A DNA stretch of 57,798 nt. Source: a virus. Location: the IMG/VR virus record IMGVR_UViG_3300032893_000052, positions 1-57,798 of that record; one strand, 5' to 3'. The notes beneath the pieces were generated by a model that worked only from the letters and a program-made list of their open reading frames with translations, did not search any database and was not told the DNA's origin. Below are positions 1 to 57,055 of this stretch, one piece after another (position 1 is the first letter of the stretch; each line of letters starts with the position of its first letter). The translations under genes were made by a program, and so were the position numbers.

Positions 1-64
1 CTACAGCATCAACTATACGTGGATACCCGTCACGCGTAAGAATTCGTGTATCACCACTCACACA
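1..64 (-). other. Intein 2 in nrdJ, N-terminal fragment only
   Basis: After extein CLEQSLESFELC the frame continues with CVSGDTRILTRDGYPRIVDA and runs off the window. This is a second splicing block A. It closely resembles the start of intein 1 (CVPAGTRILTRDGY), which suggests the two are related or once duplicated. The insertion is only 12 codons (100-65) from the end of intein 1. Its endonuclease content and C-terminal junction are outside the window. In class II reductases I would expect the reductase sequence to resume in the region after the catalytic cysteine. Confidence 0.8.
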
Positions 65-2371
65 ACATAGCTCAAACGACTCTAGACTCTGTTCTAAGCA
101 CTGTCCTGTGATTATGCCTTCAAAACAACCAGAGTGGTTCAGAGGTTCATCAAAGCAATACACAACATCCGCAACACCACACTTCTCAACACTCTCTACC
201 GTAACAAACCGGCGTGCGTCACGTTGAGGACATTTCGCCGGCAAATCCAAACGATGCGTACGCAAACCCAAAGACACCAATCTGTACGTGTCCTCGGCAT
301 TGACATTCAGTACCCAAGCCGTTTGACAAAAATAGTCCTGCATACCTCCATGACCATTCGGCATGCTACGCATACCTTCTTCTGCGCGTTTAGTAACTTT
401 AGCCTGTACGCCTAACGTAGTAAGCATTAAGCGCACATCCATAAGAAACGACAAATTCACACTACCCAACTGGATGCCGACGCTGTTTGGATTACGTACT
501 ACGCACCCATCCGCATCCAACAAACCAGCAAACCACTGAAGCTTAGACGTAACGTCCGCTTCATGTGGCACCGTAAACTTGTCAGGAATACTACAAGGAA
601 AGCCTTTCCAAACACGTCCATACTTGTCCGGTTCGCCGGAAGACTGTCCATCCAAATGAGGAAGCAAATCAATCTTCACACCGTACAACAGCGCGCCCTT
701 GTATCCACCAGCTGTAGTCTGTCCGTCACCACAAAAAAATCCATGCGTGTATGCATGTGGAAGTGGAATACCAGCCTCCACCACAGGCATGTCATACTTC
801 GACAATGCATCACCTGGTTTCAAATCTTGCGCGCGTACACGCACCTCGCCTGTGTTGCGCCGACCTGAAGCGATCAGCCATTCATGGTATTCAGTACACA
901 CAAGACTCGTATTGTCAGAGAGAACAACACGTACAAGCGGCTCATCCTTGCCTGTAACACGCGGACGAACTGTAGACCACTGATCTCCATTCCATACCAC
1001 AACATCCTGATCTACTAACGTATCAATAGCCTTGTAACCATCGCGTGTAAGAATACGTGTACCTGCTGGAACGCAAGGATTTCCCCCAGCAGCAGCATGG
1101 TCTTTGTGATCTGGTTGGTCTACCATACGCGAATACTCACGCGCATTGTCCAACCACATGTATCCAGGTTCACCGTTGGATGCTGTCCGTTCCGCAAATG
1201 ACGAGTAATCCATGCCGACCTTCGCAAAGATCGAGTTGTTGGATGCCCAACGGTGTGTGCGTAATGGATGCTCTTCAATACGCTGGTTCAGCGCGTGAAG
1301 CTCATCTGCCATTTGCTTCAAAGACTTACCACGATCACTGTCAACCACTGCAGTACCGTTGACAACCTCTTCACCGACCTGCATGTTCAGAATGGTTTGA
1401 CGTATCTGTGATTGACGAGCCTCCATAGCGTTAAGCTCAGTCGGATCTTTGAGCGCATTGAACTCAGTGTCATTCGGATCACCGAACCCAATCTCCGCAC
1501 TACGCCGAACGTTACCAGACACCACACACCGACCTTCTAGATTGAACAGATCAGCGATGGCAGTGGATGTAATCGGCTTACCGATCAATGGGCGCAGAAC
1601 TTTGTGGATCGACTCTACAAGCTCTTTGAGCGGACCAGGACCACTAGCAGTACCACCGAACGTACGTATAGGTGAACCAGCTGGACGTACTCTGCTGTAA
1701 TCTATCTGCTTAGGACACTTTGTGACACGTACATACGACTCCAGTACGTTGCGAACAAGGTCAACCCATCCCTCACGGCTGTCTTGTACTTCGAACACTT
1801 TGTCGCTGTATATCGGTTCTTGGATCGTGACCTTACCGGCGCCTTTAGTGTCCCAGCCAACGCCTACACCGAGCATTGACATGTCCATCAAAAAACAGAA
1901 TGGCGCAGAGAAACTGGCTTTTAGTTCAACCGTTGACACGAACGCACAATTATTGAGCGCTGCGCCGCCGATCTTGTCTACATAACCTGTTCCCATCATC
2001 CACAGCCCACGACCAGGAGGTGTGAACTTGAAATCCCATATACGCCTAAACATCTCCTGCGCGGACGCTTGCGCTTTGTCCGCATTCCACGGCAGTCGTA
2101 GAGTCTGACAGTGTGTCTGCTGTATGCGGTATGTGCCTTCTATTACACGCTGACAGGTCTGCCAAAACTCCTCATACGCTCCATTGTTTAGCCGTCTAGC
2201 GTATGTGCGCTTGTATGTGACGTAACCTAATGGTCCCCAGTTTGGTTGTCTGCCATGGTACTGTGCTAGAAACTTAGTGTCTAACGAGAATGGAGGATGT
2301 TGAGTCAGCCTCCCTGGCACAGACATAAGCAACCCATCACCAACAGGCAAACCTAGACCACGCAGATCCAT
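1..2371 (-). CDS. nrdJ: Class II (adenosylcobalamin-dependent) ribonucleoside-triphosphate reductase, intein-split, partial
   Basis: This frame is open from an ATG at 2371 to the left edge, so the C-terminal part is missing. The start follows an AAGGGGATA ribosome binding site. Landmarks match the Lactobacillus leichmannii type of monomeric B12-dependent RTPR: PPGRGLWMMGTG, then NNCAFVST with the first redox cysteine, then FLMDMSMLGVGVGWDTKG, then NGEPGYMWLDNAR, then NP-C. The last is the catalytic cysteine, extein residue 433 (Cys408 in the Lactobacillus enzyme). The product reduces ribonucleoside triphosphates to deoxy forms using a cobalamin-generated thiyl radical, supplying dNTPs for phage replication. 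The coding sequence is interrupted exactly before the catalytic cysteine by one intein (1075-101) and 12 extein residues later by a second (64 to the edge). Active enzyme therefore requires protein splicing. The helicase and J-domain genes lie upstream in the same direction. The family call is confident; the missing part cannot be judged. Confidence 0.93.
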   Translation of the reverse strand, partial: MDLRGLGLPVGDGLLMSVPGRLTQHPPFSLDTKFLAQYHGRQPNWGPLGYVTYKRTYARRLNNGAYEEFWQTCQRVIEGTYRIQQTHCQTLRLPWNADKAQASAQEMFRRIWDFKFTPPGRGLWMMGTGYVDKIGGAALNNCAFVSTVELKASFSAPFCFLMDMSMLGVGVGWDTKGAGKVTIQEPIYSDKVFEVQDSREGWVDLVRNVLESYVRVTKCPKQIDYSRVRPAGSPIRTFGGTASGPGPLKELVESIHKVLRPLIGKPITSTAIADLFNLEGRCVVSGNVRRSAEIGFGDPNDTEFNALKDPTELNAMEARQSQIRQTILNMQVGEEVVNGTAVVDSDRGKSLKQMADELHALNQRIEEHPLRTHRWASNNSIFAKVGMDYSSFAERTASNGEPGYMWLDNAREYSRMVDQPDHKDHAAAGGNPCVPAGTRILTRDGYKAIDTLVDQDVVVWNGDQWSTVRPRVTGKDEPLVRVVLSDNTSLVCTEYHEWLIASGRRNTGEVRVRAQDLKPGDALSKYDMPVVEAGIPLPHAYTHGFFCGDGQTTAGGYKGALLYGVKIDLLPHLDGQSSGEPDKYGRVWKGFPCSIPDKFTVPHEADVTSKLQWFAGLLDADGCVVRNPNSVGIQLGSVNLSFLMDVRLMLTTLGVQAKVTKRAEEGMRSMPNGHGGMQDYFCQTAWVLNVNAEDTYRLVSLGLRTHRLDLPAKCPQRDARRFVTVESVEKCGVADVVYCFDEPLNHSGCFEGIITGQCLEQSLESFELCCVSGDTRILTRDGYPRIVDAV
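101..1075 (-). other. Intein 1 in nrdJ with LAGLIDADG homing endonuclease (325 residues)
   Basis: The insertion sits between extein NP and extein CLEQSLESFELC. It begins with Cys in CVPAGTRILTRDGY (splicing block A). It has a TEYH block B motif (LVCTEYHEWL). It carries two dodecapeptide endonuclease motifs, HGFFCGDG near 730-750 and FAGLLDADG near 500-530. It ends YCFDEPLNHSGCFEGIITGQ before the +1 Cys. The terminal residue is Gln rather than the usual Asn, a variant known among inteins. The +1 residue is the reductase radical cysteine, so the unspliced protein should be inactive. A 325-residue length fits a splicing domain plus a LAGLIDADG nuclease. Both endonuclease motifs keep an acidic residue, so the homing activity may be intact. 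Confidence 0.9.
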
Positions 2372-7495: not shown

Positions 7496-10400
7496 TCACA
7501 TCTGAAAGAACTGAGTGCCATCGTAGTAAAGCAACAATGGAGTGTTCGCCACCGAAGTCGTTAAATCACCGCCTGACTTCATGAAGATTTTGGCGCCAGC
7601 TCCTGTACCGTTGTTCTTCACCGTCAATCCAGACGAAACTAGAATCAGCGGAATCAGCCCAGGCTGCCAATTCGTTGCGATGATCGTATTTATTGTCGTG
7701 GTGCCAGTTATTTTGAAGGATGTGCCGTCTGTGCCGAGGGTCATGTCCCCAGCCGACGCAACATCTGCTCCTCTGGCAGCACCGAAGCGACCTTCGACGA
7801 ATAGTTTCACATTGGGGTCTGAAACGGTACCCCCAACCCGCATATTTCCATTGGTATCGTGGATGTAAGCACGCTGCGTATATGCACCGCCATCCCATGT
7901 AGATAATGTGAGGGGAACTGAGTTGTCAGACGTGAGATCGAACGCGCTAGGAAGTGCCCGCATGACACCGATGCGATTTGCCGTGCCCTCTTTACGTACC
8001 CACAACTCATTAGCTACTACACGCTGCGATGATGAGCCGTCACCACCAAAATCGAAGGTATTACCAGCCCCCTTCAGCACGTTACCATGATTGTCACGCA
8101 CAACGTAGGTTGCGAGAGCTGTATATGCTAGAAAGGTGCCGCCCGCGATGCGAATATCACCAGCACTCCCTGTCACCGTCACAGCACCAGAACCACCCTG
8201 ACCGATGGCAACATCCATTCCATATGCATCACGTACGTCAATCCCAAAGCATCCTGCGTTGAGTGACCCTATGCAGTCATCAATAGCAACTGGACAACCG
8301 TACACACCTGGATTGATTACTCCTGATTGACCGGTAAATGGTGTGCCGAGTGATATGGCAGCAGTACCTGTCAACAGGGTTGAGTATGCGGAAAAATCGA
8401 TGCCATTGATGGCTGTGGGTCCGAACACAATCAACCCACCGTGATTGCCGCTGTTCGGAACAAAGCGTGTTCTTCTCTGACTGGTTGATGCCTTGCCAAC
8501 TCCGTTGTTGTTCTGGAACCTGCAGTACAGTATTACTTGACCCTTGACGTATGATCCACCGGAGAACATAACTATAGGAGCGCCATCCCACTGTAATCCG
8601 CTCGCATCATCACATGTGTAGGCTATTGAATCTGCTTTGATCAAGTCAGCTTGTAGACGGGAAGCACCTGCCATCAAAGCGCCAACACCTACAGACCTTG
8701 CCGTTCCTGACTCATCGGGATAGCTCGGCTGAAGCGTAATGCGATGAGTGCCAGTGTATGACGAAGACACAATGTTGCTGGTCGCGCCTGTCTGGTGCAC
8801 GAAACTGTAAGTAGCGTTTCCGCCTGCTATGCCCAATGCTACTCGGTTAGCAGTAGTAGTATTGAAAGCAATTCCAGCTAATACAGGAGTCGAGAAATCC
8901 GATGTGCCAAGCGGACCGCCGCGGCCTGCATTTTCTTCTTTGAAGCCAGCAAACACAACACCTGGTTTCTCTATGTACACCGAATCTCCCGCAGCGGGCG
9001 CGGTTCCAAGGTCTGTGCCTATTGTTACGACAGTACCTGTGTTCGCGTTGATGAAACCACACACATTCGCAAGTGCGCCAGTTACGTCACCCTTGAACCG
9101 CACACGACAACCAACCACAGCATCGGTAGAACCAAGAGACCCGGAGCTGACGGTAAAACTACTGACTGTAGCACCGCCCGAGATCGGAAATGATCCGTCT
9201 CCGTTGGGACCCACTACTGCTTGAATTGCTCCAAGCGTAATATGGTCCGCAGCACTGTTTGTGAGATCGGTGCTGCCTCTGCGTAGCAGGTAACCATAAC
9301 CAGAGATTCCAGTGAAATCTAGGTCGTCGTCGGTGGTTGTGTCCTGTTTCTTGTATGTAGCTCCAGCACTACGAGGTTTGATCAAGATCACGCACTGACG
9401 CCCATTGCCGTATTTTGGCAATATCTGGAATAGGCGCTCTGCTGTCTTGATTGCAAGACCAGTTGGAGTGAGCGTGGCGCCAGCAGCAGCATCCACATAT
9501 CCGATGTGGGTATCATCACCTCCGTCGTAATCGAGGAGGTAGTAACGAACCAGGGTAGGATTCCACAAGGCGGTACCAGTATTTAACCCTCCCACGCCAA
9601 GATAGATATTGCCCGTCCGGTCAACGTAGCCTGCTTTGGCCAGGTAGGTATGGGCGAAAATGCTGCCAGCTGTCCGGACATCGCCGACGCTGCCAGTGAC
9701 GGTATTTACCGCACTGGTGCCTAGGCTAATCACCTTGCCGTATTGCCCAGATACGTCGATTCCAACATCAGTATTACCAGACGATCCAGTCACTCCATCT
9801 ATCGTGACCAGACCGCCATCGGTAAGAGTGAGCGCCGGTGTTGCACCTGCATTGGTAATATCGAATTTCTGAACAGTGGCAGGACCGGAGATGACCAAAC
9901 CGCCACTTACACAACGAGTAGACTGTGCAAAAGCACTGTTTGTACTCCAGATAACAACCCCACCTGTAGAAACCAGGGTAGGTGCTTTAGCGAAGTATGA
10001 GTTAGTAGCTACCTGTCCTGTCGATACAGAAATCGTAATAGGAGCAGAGCTGTTGATCGCAGCTATTGAGCTGATAGAGCCTGGCCCATTGAAATTGATG
10101 ATGATTCCACCAGCAATACGAAGGGTAGGCCCGACTCGCGTGAGATCCGTTCCAGTCTCATCCGTGTAATTACGGCCCATAACGAGGCTGCCTGCCTCGC
10201 TCGCCCCACCATTGGTGCCGGATGATCCAGCTACAAACGTGGCATTGGTAGTAGAGCCGATTCCCTCACAGAAGTGGATTCTAGCTTGACCAAGAGCGCG
10301 TAATGCACCAACAGATGTGGATGTGAATCCGATACCAGCTATAGTCATTAGCTGGTTTGCTGGAAGTGTCACTGTTGAGACAAGAACACCTGGACGGTCA

Positions 10401-12823
10401 ACGTAGATCGTGTCGCCGTGGTTAGGAGTTCCGCTCATGTTCGGACTCACCGTGAGCGAAGTAGAAGTGTTGGCAACGATGTGGTCGCCTTCAGTGGTTC
10501 CTAGACGCAGGCGGAAACCTACTGCTGTGTCTGTCGAACCAAACGAGCCGGAAGCGATTGTCACACCGGATGTGGTAGCCGTATCGACGGCAAAACTGCT
10601 TCCAGCGCCAGGGCCAGCAATCGCAATTCGTGCTCCTAAGACAATCTTATCTGTAGCACTGTTGGTAAGGTCGGAACCACGTACAAAGGGGAATCCAGAG
10701 GCGTATCCTGTTACCCCAGTGAAATCAAGATCATCATCTGTAATGGTGTCCTGTTTCTTGTATGTAGCGCCTCCTGATCGCGGCTTGATTAGAATCACAC
10801 ATTTACGTCCGTTGCCATGTCGAGGCAAGATCTGGAACAAGCGCTCAAGAGTCTTGAGTGATCCGGTAGTCGTTACCGTGGCTCCTGCAGTCGCATCAAC
10901 GTACCCAATGTTCCCATCCCCACCGCCATCGTAGTCTACAAAGTAGTACCGAACTAGGCTTGGATCCCAATCAGCGGCAGATGCAAATGACTTTCCAGTT
11001 CCTACAAACTGATTGCCCTGTGCATCGGCGCGTGTGTATTTCGTGAAGTAGCTGTGCGACAGAACTACGCTGTCCGCTATGATGATGTCGCCTAGTGACC
11101 CAGTGACAGTGTTGGCGACTTGTGTACCGAGACGCAGAGTGCAGTTGTAGACGGCGGTAGTGTCTATACCACAACGAGTGTTGCCGCTTGATCCGACAAC
11201 ATCGTCGATAGCCACACGCATAAACTGGTTGTTACCTATGTACGAACTAGCCCCCAGCGCAATTGCGGCGGAGGACCCGGCGCCGGTGATGTTTACGCCG
11301 TAGATGGACACCTCATTCATGTTGACTGCCAGGTTTCCGATCAACCTGGTACGGCGCTCCACTGACCCGGCCCCGAGGAAATCCAAATAGCCAAAGGTGG
11401 AAGCACCCCCCTCGACCTTGGCCGCGCCGCCCACGAGGCGGACTCCACCAGCGAAATAAGACCCTTTGCCACCGACTCCGATACTCGCTGCCTGAGTAAT
11501 CAGACTGACGTCACCTCCTGGCGCCCATAAGAATGCGGAGGAGTAGGCTACAAACGCTCCAAGCGTCTTGATTCCGACGCGTCCTGCTGATCGAAGTCCA
11601 GCACCAGTTACTACCACCGCTCCAGTCTCATCTTGATAGAAATCTTGAATCCAAACAGTTCCTAGAGCACCACCGTTGCCAACAACAGACGTTGCGGAGC
11701 CGTTGATAACTTCGACGAACGAATACGTGGCTTGGGCGCTCGCTCCTATGGTAAACGTCATTGACGAACTTGTGCCGGCAAACCCCACTGTGCTGAGTGT
11801 CCGCAAAAGGTCGTTAGCGTTGGTTGGTGCGTATGCAGTGAATTGAGCCAAAGGCCATGCGGTGGCGCTGTCTGCCTCCTTGAAGGAGGCGATTCTCACT
11901 CCCGGGCGTTCTATCCAGAACGTGTCACCATTGACGGGCGAGGTTCCTAGGTTACCGCCTATGGTTATTGTTCCTACCCCCGACGTCTGTGCGTTGATGA
12001 ATCCGCATACATTACGTAGCGCTGTAGTCGTGGTGGTGGGTGTGAAGCGAATGCGGTAGCCCACCAAACTATCCGTAGTTGGGAGGGTACCAGCATTTAT
12101 CGTAATACTCGAGGTGCTGCCTGACCCCACCGTCCAAGATGAATCACCGTTTGGACCCGTTGAGGCTATGATCGCGCCTAGAGAGATACGATCTGAAGCT
12201 GAGTTTGTAAGGTCTGTGCTTCCGCGGCGCAGTATGACTGCGTAACCATTAACTCCTGTGAAATTGAACCCATCATCAGTTACGCCATCTTGCTTCTTAT
12301 AAGTCGCTCCACCAGATCGTGGTTTGACCAAGACCGCAACCATACGTCCAGACCCGACTTTAGGAAAGATTTGGTGGAAGCGCTCAATGGTCTTGAGCGC
12401 CTTGCCAGTGGGTGTAATCGTTGATCCAGGAGCAGCATCAACATAACCAACGTTTCCGTCGTTGCCGCCGTCATAGTCAATCAGATAGTAGCGGCACACG
12501 CTGAGGGACCACGTAGCGTTATCGCCAGTGCTTGGCGGCGTGATAGGCGCGTATGCGCCTCCGTTCACGGAGGCTTCTAGGAAGTTGCCACTGTTGAAAC
12601 GAAGTCGCGCAGTGCCTGCTGTTGATAGACCTACAGAATCACCGACCGCGAATCCAAAATACTGGGCGTTGAGCAAGCCACCGCGCACATCCAACAGCGC
12701 TTGCATTGCCGTATTCCAGTCACCCGCAGCCAGATACTGGCCTGGGTCGCCTCCGGGCGGGACAGTGAAGAGATTGGTCTTCGGAAAGACCAGCGACGTG
12801 TTGTCGTACACGAAGTTGGACAT
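7496..12823 (-). CDS. Giant modular tail fibre/spike protein (three repeated receptor modules)
   Basis: 1775 residues. The N-terminal ~60 residues (MSNFVYDNTSLVFPKTNLF) are nearly the same as in the 1425-residue spike encoded at 14038-18315, which marks a common anchor to the baseplate. Three homologous modules follow at about residues 108, 623 and 1091. Each opens with RYY(L/F)xDYDGG...GYVDA, continues with ILIKPRSxGATYKKQD and DLTNSA, and then has a long Gly/Ser/Thr-rich region with the strand rhythm of a parallel beta-helix. From ~1593 on, a different C-terminal domain (ANELWVRKEGTANRIGV, then GDMTLGTDG) ends in LLLYYDGTQFFQM, resembling trimerised fibre tips. The role is host surface recognition, possibly glycan degradation, though no catalytic motif was identified. 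The start is preceded by GAGAGGT. Confidence 0.88.
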   Translation of the reverse strand: MSNFVYDNTSLVFPKTNLFTVPPGGDPGQYLAAGDWNTAMQALLDVRGGLLNAQYFGFAVGDSVGLSTAGTARLRFNSGNFLEASVNGGAYAPITPPSTGDNATWSLSVCRYYLIDYDGGNDGNVGYVDAAPGSTITPTGKALKTIERFHQIFPKVGSGRMVAVLVKPRSGGATYKKQDGVTDDGFNFTGVNGYAVILRRGSTDLTNSASDRISLGAIIASTGPNGDSSWTVGSGSTSSITINAGTLPTTDSLVGYRIRFTPTTTTTALRNVCGFINAQTSGVGTITIGGNLGTSPVNGDTFWIERPGVRIASFKEADSATAWPLAQFTAYAPTNANDLLRTLSTVGFAGTSSSMTFTIGASAQATYSFVEVINGSATSVVGNGGALGTVWIQDFYQDETGAVVVTGAGLRSAGRVGIKTLGAFVAYSSAFLWAPGGDVSLITQAASIGVGGKGSYFAGGVRLVGGAAKVEGGASTFGYLDFLGAGSVERRTRLIGNLAVNMNEVSIYGVNITGAGSSAAIALGASSYIGNNQFMRVAIDDVVGSSGNTRCGIDTTAVYNCTLRLGTQVANTVTGSLGDIIIADSVVLSHSYFTKYTRADAQGNQFVGTGKSFASAADWDPSLVRYYFVDYDGGGDGNIGYVDATAGATVTTTGSLKTLERLFQILPRHGNGRKCVILIKPRSGGATYKKQDTITDDDLDFTGVTGYASGFPFVRGSDLTNSATDKIVLGARIAIAGPGAGSSFAVDTATTSGVTIASGSFGSTDTAVGFRLRLGTTEGDHIVANTSTSLTVSPNMSGTPNHGDTIYVDRPGVLVSTVTLPANQLMTIAGIGFTSTSVGALRALGQARIHFCEGIGSTTNATFVAGSSGTNGGASEAGSLVMGRNYTDETGTDLTRVGPTLRIAGGIIINFNGPGSISSIAAINSSAPITISVSTGQVATNSYFAKAPTLVSTGGVVIWSTNSAFAQSTRCVSGGLVISGPATVQKFDITNAGATPALTLTDGGLVTIDGVTGSSGNTDVGIDVSGQYGKVISLGTSAVNTVTGSVGDVRTAGSIFAHTYLAKAGYVDRTGNIYLGVGGLNTGTALWNPTLVRYYLLDYDGGDDTHIGYVDAAAGATLTPTGLAIKTAERLFQILPKYGNGRQCVILIKPRSAGATYKKQDTTTDDDLDFTGISGYGYLLRRGSTDLTNSAADHITLGAIQAVVGPNGDGSFPISGGATVSSFTVSSGSLGSTDAVVGCRVRFKGDVTGALANVCGFINANTGTVVTIGTDLGTAPAAGDSVYIEKPGVVFAGFKEENAGRGGPLGTSDFSTPVLAGIAFNTTTANRVALGIAGGNATYSFVHQTGATSNIVSSSYTGTHRITLQPSYPDESGTARSVGVGALMAGASRLQADLIKADSIAYTCDDASGLQWDGAPIVMFSGGSYVKGQVILYCRFQNNNGVGKASTSQRRTRFVPNSGNHGGLIVFGPTAINGIDFSAYSTLLTGTAAISLGTPFTGQSGVINPGVYGCPVAIDDCIGSLNAGCFGIDVRDAYGMDVAIGQGGSGAVTVTGSAGDIRIAGGTFLAYTALATYVVRDNHGNVLKGAGNTFDFGGDGSSSQRVVANELWVRKEGTANRIGVMRALPSAFDLTSDNSVPLTLSTWDGGAYTQRAYIHDTNGNMRVGGTVSDPNVKLFVEGRFGAARGADVASAGDMTLGTDGTSFKITGTTTINTIIATNWQPGLIPLILVSSGLTVKNNGTGAGAKIFMKSGGDLTTSVANTPLLLYYDGTQFFQM

Positions 12824-49149: not shown

Positions 49150-50223
49150 TCACACGGATTGTCCACCAGAAAGATACCCCGAGTACCTCTCAGGTTCATG
49201 GATCGTCGGCTCTTCGCCGTATTTTCGAGAGTACAGCTTCCGTGGTTCCTCTCCCGGCGGTACGTTGTTGTCAAATGCTACAGCGTCATGCGTTAGTTGG
49301 GCTAACCTATCAAAATTGCCTGGAATTTTGCTGTAGGCGTCCTCGGCAAAGTCCAACGGAACCCAACGACCTGTGTTGAGTGCGCGCTCTGCGACGCGGC
49401 GTTTTCCTTCCTGAATGGGAAGATGTACGCCGACCAAGCGCACGTGGTAGCCCTTGGCCTTTAGATCCTCGACGCGCTTAGCCATCTTGTCATAGTCCGC
49501 ACCCACGCCGTCCAGCAAAACATTCTTGCGCTGAGCTAATGCTGTCTCGCGTATGTTTTTCGCTATGTCGGATGACTCTTCGTGAGTCATGCGTGCAGCA
49601 TTGAGCGCACGTCCCTTCACAGCCTCCTGATACTCAGGCAACTGAGCTTTGATTCCGTCTGGATCCACAGGAACAAAGTCGCTTATGTCCCAACCTTTGG
49701 TAGCGGATGACTTGCCCGAACCTGGGCCGCCCATCATCATGATCGCTACAGGTTTCTTGTCCGGCGGTACTGGTTTGGCTTGACTTAAGAAGTGGTCTGC
49801 GATCTGAGCGTGCAGCTGTGCGCGTTCTGGCGTGTATTGTCCGTTAGCTTGCTTGTACACACTCTGTGTGTCGGACGGAAGGTTATCGAGCTTGTCAACG
49901 AAACCCTGACTGACTAAGTGACTATACAAAGCACCGCTGTCTAGTGGCATATCCGGCGGAATCTTCATCCGCTTGGAATGCTTCTTAGACGGACCAGGCT
50001 CGGACGCAGGGTCATACGGTTTGGCTGTTGGGCTGGCGGCGGCGTTCTCTTCAGTTTGAGCTTCGCCTGGACTAACGTAGTAAGTTTCTTCAAACGTCTG
50101 ACCGTTACGCGTAACCTGACGCTTCATTGGCACGAGACTCTCAGAGCCACCGTGCTTACAGATCAGATCTAGAATCGGGTCTGACTGACCTTTCATTAGG
50201 TTAAATAGACGTTCAACTGACAT
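49150..50223 (-). CDS. Zeta-toxin-type kinase
   Basis: 357 residues. The N-terminal ~150 residues are mainly disordered, with one helical stretch (GALYSHLVSQGFVDKLDNLP). The kinase domain contains IMMMGGPGSGKSS (Walker A, residue ~165), VDPDGIKAQLPEYQEA (substrate pocket Asp) and MTHEESSDIAKNIRETAL, followed by NVLLDGVGADYDKMAKRVED. These are the landmarks of Zeta and related UDP-N-acetylglucosamine kinases, which block cell-wall synthesis. The long N-terminal region is not found in plasmid Zeta toxins (about 290 residues) and could be a virion or docking tail. The ATG forms TAATG with the preceding synthetase gene. No antitoxin is evident. Confidence 0.85.
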   Translation of the reverse strand: MSVERLFNLMKGQSDPILDLICKHGGSESLVPMKRQVTRNGQTFEETYYVSPGEAQTEENAAASPTAKPYDPASEPGPSKKHSKRMKIPPDMPLDSGALYSHLVSQGFVDKLDNLPSDTQSVYKQANGQYTPERAQLHAQIADHFLSQAKPVPPDKKPVAIMMMGGPGSGKSSATKGWDISDFVPVDPDGIKAQLPEYQEAVKGRALNAARMTHEESSDIAKNIRETALAQRKNVLLDGVGADYDKMAKRVEDLKAKGYHVRLVGVHLPIQEGKRRVAERALNTGRWVPLDFAEDAYSKIPGNFDRLAQLTHDAVAFDNNVPPGEEPRKLYSRKYGEEPTIHEPERYSGYLSGGQSV

Positions 50224-51020
50224 TACAAGCCTCCGATAGCCAACCTCACCACTGCTGGCAGTTCAGGCTTCTTGCCAACGGCTGCATTGTCGTCTAATGC
50301 TGCGTAGTAATCAGATAACTGCACTACGTACGAATCGATGGTGTCACGGTTTCTACGTAGCAGTTCTTTCTGTGCCAACGTACGTGGCTTGTATACGTCG
50401 TGTCTCCAGTTAGCCAGTTTCAACTGGTTGTTGGTGAGGATTTGTACTTCCTTCACCAATCCGTCTGTATCCTTGATTGCTAGATGATAGGCGCGATAGC
50501 CAGCACGCGGCGTTTCGATATAGTCGTCGTCAGACAGTACTTGGTAACGTGCCTTCACACGCTCAGCTGTACGCATAACCTCCTCGGTAGTGTCTACAAC
50601 CAACCGTACACCTGTCAAATCCTGTAGGTCTGCAGCTGATTTGTAATGTGGCTTATCATGAAGCTTCGCCACAATACTCTCAAGTGTCTTGACACGGCCT
50701 TCTACACGCGTACCTGGCAACGACAGTTTCCGCATGTCTGCGATGAAACGTCCATAGTTAGCTCTATGCTTTGGTAGCTCGTCACTAGCAATCGCAACGT
50801 GCTCTTCGAATGATCGTCCACCTGGCATTTTGCCAGCATACTGATCACGCAGCGACTGAAGCCTGGGCGTAGTATCAACGATGTCAGTGCCGCGTGAGTC
50901 TAGCGCAGCCTCCACAGTCTTCACAACGACACTGCTTTTGGGCGAGTACCCTCGGCTTTCATCATACCAACGTCCGTAGGAATCTCTGCGTAATCGTGAA
51001 GCGAAATACCGTGTATCCAC
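50223..51020 (-). CDS. RelA/SpoT-type (p)ppGpp synthetase-like protein
   Basis: Up to 265 residues. The nucleotidyltransferase core runs ~105-215 and has the family's key landmarks: GRVKTLESIVAKLHDKPHYK, then DLTGVRLVVDTT (metal-binding Asp), then DDDYIETPRAGYRAYHLAI, then LVKEVQILTNNQLKLANWRH with the catalytic Glu. No hydrolase HD domain is present, so this is a synthetase-only, small-alarmone-synthetase-like protein. It could deplete GTP/ATP or raise alarmone in the host on entry. The ORF overlaps the 981-residue gene by 100 nt. A GTG at 50924 overlapping that gene's stop (GTGA) gives a 233-residue version and may be the true start. It is followed directly by the Zeta-type kinase. Confidence 0.85.
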   Translation of the reverse strand: MDTRYFASRLRRDSYGRWYDESRGYSPKSSVVVKTVEAALDSRGTDIVDTTPRLQSLRDQYAGKMPGGRSFEEHVAIASDELPKHRANYGRFIADMRKLSLPGTRVEGRVKTLESIVAKLHDKPHYKSAADLQDLTGVRLVVDTTEEVMRTAERVKARYQVLSDDDYIETPRAGYRAYHLAIKDTDGLVKEVQILTNNQLKLANWRHDVYKPRTLAQKELLRRNRDTIDSYVVQLSDYYAALDDNAAVGKKPELPAVVRLAIGGL

Positions 51021-55432: not shown

Positions 55433-57055
55433 CTACACTAGCTTAAGGAACGACTCCAACGCCTTGTAAGCAGTCGGTTCCACATACGTACTCTGACTGC
55501 CTGCATTCGTTGGAGGCGACAACGGACCAGCAGCTTGTGGTCGTGGCATACCTTGCGGTGCTTGCATTGTGTTTGAACCAGCAGCGGGCTGCACTTGCGT
55601 CATACCAGGAACAGGCCCTTGCCTCAGCGGCATCGGATTACCCATGATAGGCTTTCCCTGATCCGGTGACAGCAATGCCTGCAGGCTCGCTAATGGATCG
55701 CGTGGCGCTCCACCTGGCGGTGAACCACCAGGTACACCAGGAGGACCACCAGGACCGCCACCTTGCTGCGTTCCCATGGGCGGTTGACCTTGTGGCGTTC
55801 CCATAGGCGGTTGACCTTGGCTTGCAACAGGTGGCTGTGCTGCAGGGGGCGGTGGTTTAGGCAGCGTCATACCCGGCAGACCTGTAGCAGGACTCTGTTG
55901 TTGTCCGCCACCCATGCCCATACCTGGCTGCATCATTGGTGGTTGTGGACGCGGTTGCGGCGGTGCCCCCATACCGGGAGGGGACACACCCATTCCTTGA
56001 CCGCCACCCATCCCCATGCTGGGCGGTGGTTGCTGTGGCGGACGCATTGGTGGCTGTATCTGTGGTGGCTGCTGTGGCGGTACTTGTCCAAACGGACTAC
56101 CGGAACCTGTAGGCGACGGCGGCATGCCTCCAGGGCCAGGCATTTGAGGTGGACGCACTTGCCCAGGAGGAGGTTGACCCGTACCCATCGCGCCTTGACC
56201 AGGTAGCATGCCACCCATCATAGGCGGCGGTGCTGGTTTGGCAAGCGTCGGCATGCCTCCACCCGCTTGTGGTGTAGGAGAAGGCGCACCCATTCCTGCT
56301 GAACCTGCGGGCGGAGGAGCGCCCGGCGTTCCCATTCCCTGTCCTGGTGTCTGTGGCATTCCCATTCCAGGTGGTTTTGGTGCTTGTGCCATAGGCATTC
56401 CCGCACCCGGACCTTGTAGATTGGGTTGCGGCTGTCCTGGCATAAGCGTACGTCCACCTTGCGGCGTACTGTTCATCGGACCTTGTGGCGGACCACCAGG
56501 AGCTTGACCAAACTTGGCAGCGAACCGCTCCATTGGAGACTGACTGTCGTTGCCCATCTGCTTGTGTGCAGCAGCTGCTTGCAGATGTTGTGATGTCTCT
56601 TGTGGACTAGACGCACCTGCAGCTAGACGCTCGTGATGAGCAGCAGCGGCTTCATGGTCATCTTTGCCGAAGTCTTTGTGCGCAGGGTGGAACGGATCAC
56701 CATAGATAGGGATTCCAGATGGTGCCATACCAATCGGATTACTCTGACTATTGGGCATTGCACGCGGCTGCGAAGCACCTGTCATTCCACCACCAGGGAT
56801 CTGCGGTGCACCTTGCTGTAGAGGTACGTCTGGTGTGCCGAGTGCTTTGAGCACAAGTTCCGGACTCAGCTCTGGTACAAAGGCATTCGGACGGTAAGCA
56901 GATGGATAACCGTGAAACGCACCACGAGTAGTGATTGGCGTACCCATTCTGTGGTGCACTTCCGTCCTCTCAGCATGAGAACTCGACTTTGTGATGGGTT
57001 CCGCAAACGTCGGATCAACCCAGTTGAGAGGCCGCTTAGCGCCGTGGTTTGTCAT
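55433..57055 (-). CDS. Pro/Gly/Met-rich low-complexity protein
   Basis: 540 residues. The first ~65 residues look folded (NWVDPTFAEPITKSSSHAER), then a His/Ala-rich helix (KDDHEAAAAHHERLAAGASS) at ~130. Residues ~180-500 are a long disordered stretch dominated by Pro, Gly, Met and Gln (MGMGGGQGMGVSPPGMGAPP). A short helical end (YVEPTAYKALESFLKLV) closes the protein. The Met/Pro motif also occurs in the adjacent InPase protein. It may be a packaged, flexible injected protein or an unusual scaffold; there is no catalytic motif. A short gene overlaps its start as ATGA. Confidence 0.78.
   Translation of the reverse strand: MTNHGAKRPLNWVDPTFAEPITKSSSHAERTEVHHRMGTPITTRGAFHGYPSAYRPNAFVPELSPELVLKALGTPDVPLQQGAPQIPGGGMTGASQPRAMPNSQSNPIGMAPSGIPIYGDPFHPAHKDFGKDDHEAAAAHHERLAAGASSPQETSQHLQAAAAHKQMGNDSQSPMERFAAKFGQAPGGPPQGPMNSTPQGGRTLMPGQPQPNLQGPGAGMPMAQAPKPPGMGMPQTPGQGMGTPGAPPPAGSAGMGAPSPTPQAGGGMPTLAKPAPPPMMGGMLPGQGAMGTGQPPPGQVRPPQMPGPGGMPPSPTGSGSPFGQVPPQQPPQIQPPMRPPQQPPPSMGMGGGQGMGVSPPGMGAPPQPRPQPPMMQPGMGMGGGQQQSPATGLPGMTLPKPPPPAAQPPVASQGQPPMGTPQGQPPMGTQQGGGPGGPPGVPGGSPPGGAPRDPLASLQALLSPDQGKPIMGNPMPLRQGPVPGMTQVQPAAGSNTMQAPQGMPRPQAAGPLSPPTNAGSQSTYVEPTAYKALESFLKLV

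What the first reader, a model, noticed from the sequence alone, without database searches (positions are those of the whole stretch)
1..1075. Two inteins 12 codons apart in the active site of a B12-dependent reductase
Intein 1 (325 residues) is followed after exactly 12 extein residues (CLEQSLESFELC) by a second splicing start that closely resembles its own (CVPAGTRILTRDGY and CVSGDTRILTRDGY). The catalytic cysteine is the +1 nucleophile of intein 1, so dNTP synthesis depends on splicing. Intein 1 ends in Gln instead of Asn. Two related inteins this close imply either a duplication or competing homing in the same conserved motif.
Basis: partly seen in the sequence, partly recalled or inferred. 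Interest (0 to 1): 0.8.

Follow-up and report, generated by a model that had tools for sequence, protein, structure and literature searches.

The report
Double intein at phage reductase active site
A phage gene for the enzyme that makes DNA building blocks is interrupted by two self-splicing protein parasites only 12 amino acids apart, each placed against a catalytic cysteine; the same paired arrangement turns up in several other viruses and in one archaeon, so it is a recurrent hot spot rather than a one-off duplication.

Summary
The minus-strand ORF 2..2371 is a monomeric B12-dependent ribonucleotide reductase (NrdJ). It carries a complete 325-residue LAGLIDADG intein (101..1075), a 12-residue extein (65..100) and the first 21 residues of a second intein before the record ends. 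By alignment to solved RTPR (1L1L), the +1 Cys of intein 1 is C408, the radical cysteine. The last spacer residue is C419, a redox cysteine, which becomes the -1 residue of intein 2. Terminal Gln is a family trait, not a defect.

The two inteins belong to two sister families, one per site, separated by a 100/100 branch. They share deep ancestry, but each is allelic with inteins at the same site in other viruses. Their shared stretch differs at most synonymous sites. This rejects a recent duplication and favours separate homing.

Doubles with an 11-12 residue spacer occur in six other viral records and one Lokiarchaeota MAG. Intein 1's family also occupies the radical cysteine of class I phage reductases. 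Related inteins also differ by one codon in insertion point around both cysteines.

This is a new member of a known kind, with a well-resolved history. Splicing and homing activity remain inferred.

The parts
1076..2371 (-). N-terminal extein of monomeric class II (B12-dependent) ribonucleotide reductase NrdJ, residues 1-432; C119-equivalent in ALNNCAF at 1940..1960
   Evidence: PF17975 3.3e-30, PF21995 1.9e-11, TIGR02505 5.6e-51, phrog_367 3.8e-65; motif position
101..1075 (-). Intein 1 (site A, inserted NP|C408), 325 aa, LAGLIDADG-type, C1 ... Q325
   Evidence: TIGR01445 and PF14528; AlphaFold pLDDT 95.5 with PI-SceI/PI-PfuI fold; tree
884..895 (-). Intein 1 block B TxxH (T61-E-Y-H64)
   Evidence: sequence; both residues invariant in A5 and A6
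722..745 (-). Intein 1 first LAGLIDADG-like motif HGFFCGDG (block C)
   Evidence: sequence
506..535 (-). Intein 1 second LAGLIDADG motif WFAGLLDADG (block E)
   Evidence: PF14528 match to residues 611-671
146..160 (-). Intein 1 block F YCFDE with Cys at position F:4 (C307)
   Evidence: invariant in A5 and A6
65..100 (-). Inter-intein extein CLEQSLESFELC: first residue = C408 (radical Cys, +1 of intein 1, codon 98..100), last residue = C419 (redox Cys, -1 of intein 2, codon 65..67)
   Evidence: alignment of intein-free viral relative L019 to 1L1L
2..64 (-). Start of intein 2 (site B, inserted C419|residue 420), first 21 residues; remainder lies beyond the record
   Evidence: TIGR01445 E 0.0012; best match is site-B intein L128, L005 third

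Best explanation
The NrdJ gene of this uncultured tailed phage carries two allelic, independently mobile inteins at neighbouring sites. Site A is immediately before the radical cysteine C408. Site B is immediately after the redox cysteine C419. The single translated precursor should splice twice: Cys1 of each intein forms a thioester with the preceding extein residue, the +1 Cys (C408 for intein 1, the residue at 420 for intein 2) takes over the extein, the terminal Gln cyclises, and the 12-residue exon is joined on both sides to restore ...NP-CLEQSLESFELC-C.... At the DNA level each intein's LAGLIDADG endonuclease cuts the empty site in a co-infecting or resident NrdJ gene, and repair copies the intein in. 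Shown here: sequence anatomy, intact reading frame, conserved splicing and endonuclease motifs of intein 1, site homology, allelism with other loci, and deep sister relationship of the two families. Inferred: that both splice, that the endonucleases are active, the direction of the ancient move (A to B), and the completeness of intein 2.
For: Frame and motifs; Hint and endonuclease fold; C408/C419 mapping; uninterrupted NPC-x10-C motif in 60 viral NrdJ lacking inteins at both sites; L002 has intein A only and L005 has intein B only; intein 1 is 57% identical in L169 although its N-extein is only 22% identical, which shows transfer between divergent reductases; intein 1 clusters with L002, L168 and L169 (100/100) and all site-B inteins form one clade (100/100); same-site relatives in class Ia NrdA of cultured phages, e.g. 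ICP1, Barba, Bestia, phiTE-like; A+B doubles with an 11-12 residue spacer in L129, L130, L134, L136, L141, L157 and the Lokiarchaeota contig L245.
Against: Only 21 residues of intein 2 are in the record, so its splicing blocks and C-extein are unseen. No splicing or cleavage was measured. The residue at -1 of intein 1 is proline, which slows many inteins (own knowledge), although it is the rule for this family at class II sites.
Confidence: 0.87

Rival explanations
1. Recent tandem duplication: intein 2 is a copy of intein 1 that moved 12 codons downstream within this phage lineage.
For: Starts share TRILTRDGY; the two families are sisters over full length.
Against: Intein 2's start is closest to another virus's site-B intein, with intein 1 35th of 105; 27 of 63 nucleotides differ between the two starts, including synonymous changes in 6 of the 9 shared codons. 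Families are about 30% identical and split by a 100/100 branch.
Confidence: 0.04
2. Assembly artefact: the last 64 bases of the contig are a chimeric join.
For: The junction lies at the very end of the record; no other viral contig held here overlaps the end exactly.
Against: The joined sequence is not a copy of intein 1, keeps frame, and lands at the exact position and register used by site-B inteins elsewhere (ELC|C..., 11 loci), with the same 12-residue spacer as L129, L130 and L245.
Confidence: 0.05
3. The inteins are retained as a regulatory lock: the spacer's two redox-sensitive cysteines at the splice junctions make maturation of NrdJ conditional on redox state.
For: C408 is +1 of intein 1 and C419 is -1 of intein 2; conditional splicing is documented for other inteins (e.g. 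DnaB, PMC6195587, abstract seen).
Against: Most viral NrdJ sampled lack inteins; patchy distribution and transfer between divergent reductases fit selfish spread. No direct evidence for regulation.
Confidence: 0.07
4. Cross-splicing between the two related inteins (N-half of intein 1 with C-half of intein 2) sometimes skips the 12-residue exon and yields a dead reductase.
For: The two families share block A, B, F and G motifs.
Against: About 30% identity and intervening domains make mispairing unlikely; purely inferred.
Confidence: 0.03

Closest known systems
Class Ia RNR alpha-subunit inteins of cultured phages (ICP1 nrdA, Rheinheimera Barba phages, Acinetobacter Bestia, Pectobacterium phages, Corynebacterium phage Stickynote; P1201 nrdE intein reported in PMC3653736)
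   Same: Homologous intein over the full length (38-44% identity in these), inserted before the cysteine of SNL|C, read here as the class I radical cysteine, Gln or Asn end, mostly Gly at the penultimate position
   Different: Host is class I reductase; those fetched here were seen with an intein at this site and were not searched for a second one; class I site-A inteins form their own clade
Haloarchaeal MCM-a and MCM-d neighbouring inteins (PMC10643990)
   Same: Two homing inteins at close sites in one essential gene, each able to occur alone
   Different: Different gene and intein families; homing measured there, not here; the passages read do not state the spacing
Trichodesmium erythraeum ribonucleotide reductase with four inteins (Liu et al. 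2003, cited in PMC1635734)
   Same: Several inteins in one RNR gene
   Different: Cellular gene that also has group II introns; its insertion sites were not compared here
Chilo iridescent virus RNR intein (described in PMC4031507)
   Same: RNR intein with C-terminal Gln that splices
   Different: Its sequence and insertion site were not compared here

Membership tests
Intein (intein 1) | In-frame insertion at a conserved site of a host protein, flanks continuous in intein-free homologues | tested here: met
   Open frame; 60 viral NrdJ with uninterrupted NPC-x10-C
Intein (intein 1) | Block A nucleophile and N-terminal splicing region | tested here: met
   C1; TIGR01445 32.1 bits, cut-off 24.5
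Intein (intein 1) | Block B TxxH | tested here: met
   T61, H64, invariant in A5 and A6
Intein (intein 1) | Blocks F and G with terminal Asn or Gln and +1 Cys/Ser/Thr | tested here: met
   YCF C307...TGQ|C408; Gln and non-His penultimate residue are accepted variants (PMC4031507)
Intein (intein 1) | Hint fold | tested here: met
   pLDDT 95.5; best PDB matches are inteins
Intein (intein 1) | Homing endonuclease domain | tested here: met
   PF14528 39.2 bits, cut-off 22.5; two acidic motifs present; activity not measured
Intein (intein 1) | Autocatalytic splicing | not testable with these tools
   needs expression
Intein (intein 2) | Block A | tested here: inconclusive
   21 residues match TIGR01445 at E 0.0012 but 19.8 bits is below the cut-off; site and register match 11 other inteins
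Intein (intein 2) | Blocks B, F, G and C-extein | not testable with these tools
   beyond the end of the record
Monomeric class II RNR (TIGR02505 RTPR) | Family model score above cut-off | tested here: inconclusive
   173.6 bits against 340; the C-terminal part of the protein is missing
Monomeric class II RNR (TIGR02505 RTPR) | RNR-II insertion domain and catalytic cysteines C119, C408, C419 | tested here: met
   PF21995; positions by alignment of relative L019 to 1L1L and motifs in the window

The most novel reading that the evidence does not exclude
One intein superfamily has specialised on the catalytic cysteines of ribonucleotide reductases: one branch on the radical cysteine of class I and class II enzymes (plus a small branch at a His|Ser site in R2-like genes) and a sister branch on the redox cysteine 11-12 residues away in NrdJ. 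It moved once between the two sites and can later slide by one codon around each cysteine, so that doubly occupied active sites arise again and again by sequential homing.
Probability: 0.55. Interest if true: 0.6.

Novelty: new member of a known kind. Interest (0 to 1): 0.47.

Why it matters
Inteins in RNR genes and genes with several inteins are known. What is added is a worked example in which two related inteins flank a 12-residue exon that holds two catalytic cysteines, with relatives in every needed state (none, A only, B only, both). That makes the stepwise build-up of double inteins, which was studied in haloarchaeal MCM (PMC10643990), testable in phages. The one-codon differences in insertion point around both cysteines, including within identical mature motifs (L243 vs L247; L180 vs L236), bear on how intein sites are defined and how homing tolerates register changes.

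Tried and rejected
Right end of the window as the continuation of the gene: not there, and no terminal overlap. Overlapping viral contig by exact match to the left edge: none. Near-identical phages in the annotated collection: none. Recent duplication: rejected. Gln end as a sign of decay: rejected, family trait. Extra loci through L130: only four, no change to the picture. A search of papers for one-residue shifts of intein insertion points gave no precedent that I recognised in titles and abstracts; this is weak evidence of absence. The test that the hand-picked A and B rows alone form one clade gave p-AU 0.126 (not rejected); in the free tree L131's intein also falls among them.

Full report
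WHAT IS THERE. The window is an entire virus record of 57,798 bp, linear, without end repeats. Its left edge cuts a minus-strand gene, ORF 2..2371, whose N-terminal 432 residues are a monomeric B12-dependent ribonucleoside-triphosphate reductase. Residues 433-757 are a complete LAGLIDADG intein (window 1075..101). Residues 758-769 (100..65) are extein CLEQSLESFELC. Residue 770 begins a second intein start, CVSGDTRILTRDGYPRIVDAV, of which 21 residues are present. The right end of the record does not contain the rest of the gene and no overlapping viral contig was found.

POSITION IN THE ENZYME. An intein-free viral relative (L019) aligned to Lactobacillus leichmannii RTPR (1L1L) puts the Cys of NPC at C408 and the Cys of FELC at C419; the next residue is Asn420 in 1L1L. 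C408 is the radical cysteine and C119/C419 the redox pair (established knowledge of RTPR). So C408 is the +1 nucleophile of intein 1, and C419 is the -1 residue of intein 2, whose +1 would be residue 420. Both catalytic cysteines of this stretch are splice-junction residues. Sixty viral NrdJ that lack inteins at these two sites keep NPC-x10-C at exactly this spacing, with residue 420 Cys in 28, Asn in 24 and Thr in 8.

INTEIN 1. It has C1, TxxH at 61-64, two LAGLIDADG motifs, a Cys in block F and Gln at its end. AlphaFold gives pLDDT 95.5, and the best solved matches are PI-SceI, TliVMA and PI-PfuI. Terminal Gln with Gly before it is the norm in its family: 55 of 71 relatives end in Gln. The review PMC4031507 records that inteins can splice with Gln, that position F:4 is often Cys, and that some functional inteins lack the penultimate His. 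The Gln end is therefore not a sign of damage.

RELATIVES AND HOMING. Intein 1 is about 63% identical to inteins at the same site in L002 and L168, and 57% to L169, whose reductase N-extein is only 22% identical to the window's. That contrast requires transfer of the intein between divergent reductases. More distant relatives sit before the cysteine of SNL|C in class Ia NrdA of cultured phages, including ICP1 and Rheinheimera, Acinetobacter and Pectobacterium phages; I read this as the class I radical cysteine (C439 of E. coli NrdA, own knowledge). They also occur in other class II genes (NP|C and NA|C), and in loci at an ENIH|SETYS site that I read as the metal site of the R2 subunit (my reading of the motif, not tested with a family model). 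In the tree of 105 inteins, class I and class II site-A inteins separate (99/94), and the window's intein lies with L002, L168 and L169 (100/100).

THE SECOND SITE. Site-B inteins were found in viral contigs, in six Lokiarchaeota MAG contigs, a Clostridiales MAG and Prochloron. Thirty-four distinct ones form one clade (100/100). With other NrdJ inteins as outgroups, the site-A family of the window and the site-B family are sisters (100/99), and the next branch (L029, L141) is again at site A (99/92), which suggests one ancient move from A to B. The direction is inferred. The 21 residues of the window's intein 2 match best a site-B intein (L128), with L005 third; intein 1 itself ranks 35th of 105. 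In the shared TRILTRDGY, 6 of 9 codons differ synonymously. A recent duplication in this phage is therefore rejected.

DOUBLES ARE RECURRENT. Single occupancy of each site exists (L002 A only; L005 B only). Thirteen of 34 distinct site-B inteins (two of them near-copies) lie in genes with a site-A intein as well. The spacer is 11-12 residues in L129, L130, L134, L136, L141, L157 and the Lokiarchaeota contig L245, and longer in L131/L133, L148, L152, L154 and L155. The site-A partner belongs to several separate lineages: VHN-ended, HNH-like, Ser1-type, the L029/L141 type, and the window's own family in L131. The natural reading is repeated, sequential homing. In haloarchaeal MCM, co-homing of two neighbouring inteins into an empty gene is inefficient and doubles arise from singly occupied alleles (PMC10643990). 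Whether the same holds here is untested.

ONE-CODON SHIFTS. Site-B inteins use two registers, C419|420 (11 inteins, always with Cys420) and 418|C419 (23 inteins), and the tree needs 6 changes between them, of which well-supported branches force fewer. The Lokiarchaeota genes L243 and L247 share the mature motif ELCCLV but have the intein one codon apart. At site A, L180 (NP|CSEII) and L179/L236 (NPC|SEII) show the same. Neighbouring Cys codons and the Cys1 codon may allow slippage during repair; this mechanism is inference.

LIMITS. Intein 2 is seen only at its start. No splicing, cleavage or homing was measured. Counts come from pattern-based scans and are not unbiased frequencies. MAG assignments, such as those to Lokiarchaeota, may include contigs of viruses.

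Noticed in passing
window 49150..50223 (-) and 50223..51020 (-): Adjacent genes with a Zeta_toxin kinase domain (PF06414, 3.7e-31) and a RelA_SpoT domain (PF04607, 7.3e-16); the first also matches a phage minor-head PHROG, which hints at head-associated effector-like domains.
   Followed up: partly
window 7496..12823 (-): 1,775-aa protein with three internal repeats about 470-515 residues apart (KPRS[AG]GATYKKQD at 166, 679, 1148), without a Pfam match.
   Followed up: partly
window 55433..57055 (-): 540-aa Pro/Gly/Gln/Met-rich low-complexity protein.
   Followed up: no
L243, L244, L245, L247, L249: Site-B inteins in NrdJ of Lokiarchaeota MAG contigs, one (L245) with both sites occupied and one (L247) in the other register; contamination of MAGs by viral contigs not excluded.
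   Followed up: partly
L136/L080, L062, L141, L130: Viral NrdJ genes with three or more inteins; in L136 the +1 residues of neighbouring inteins are C408 and C419 themselves.
   Followed up: partly
L206, L217, L229: Relatives of intein 1 inserted at ENIH|SETYS, which looks like the metal site of an RNR R2 subunit, another catalytic position.
   Followed up: no
L130, L134, L157: Site-A inteins that start with Ser instead of Cys (NP|SLxAGT...TGN|C), not close kin of the window's intein 1.
   Followed up: partly
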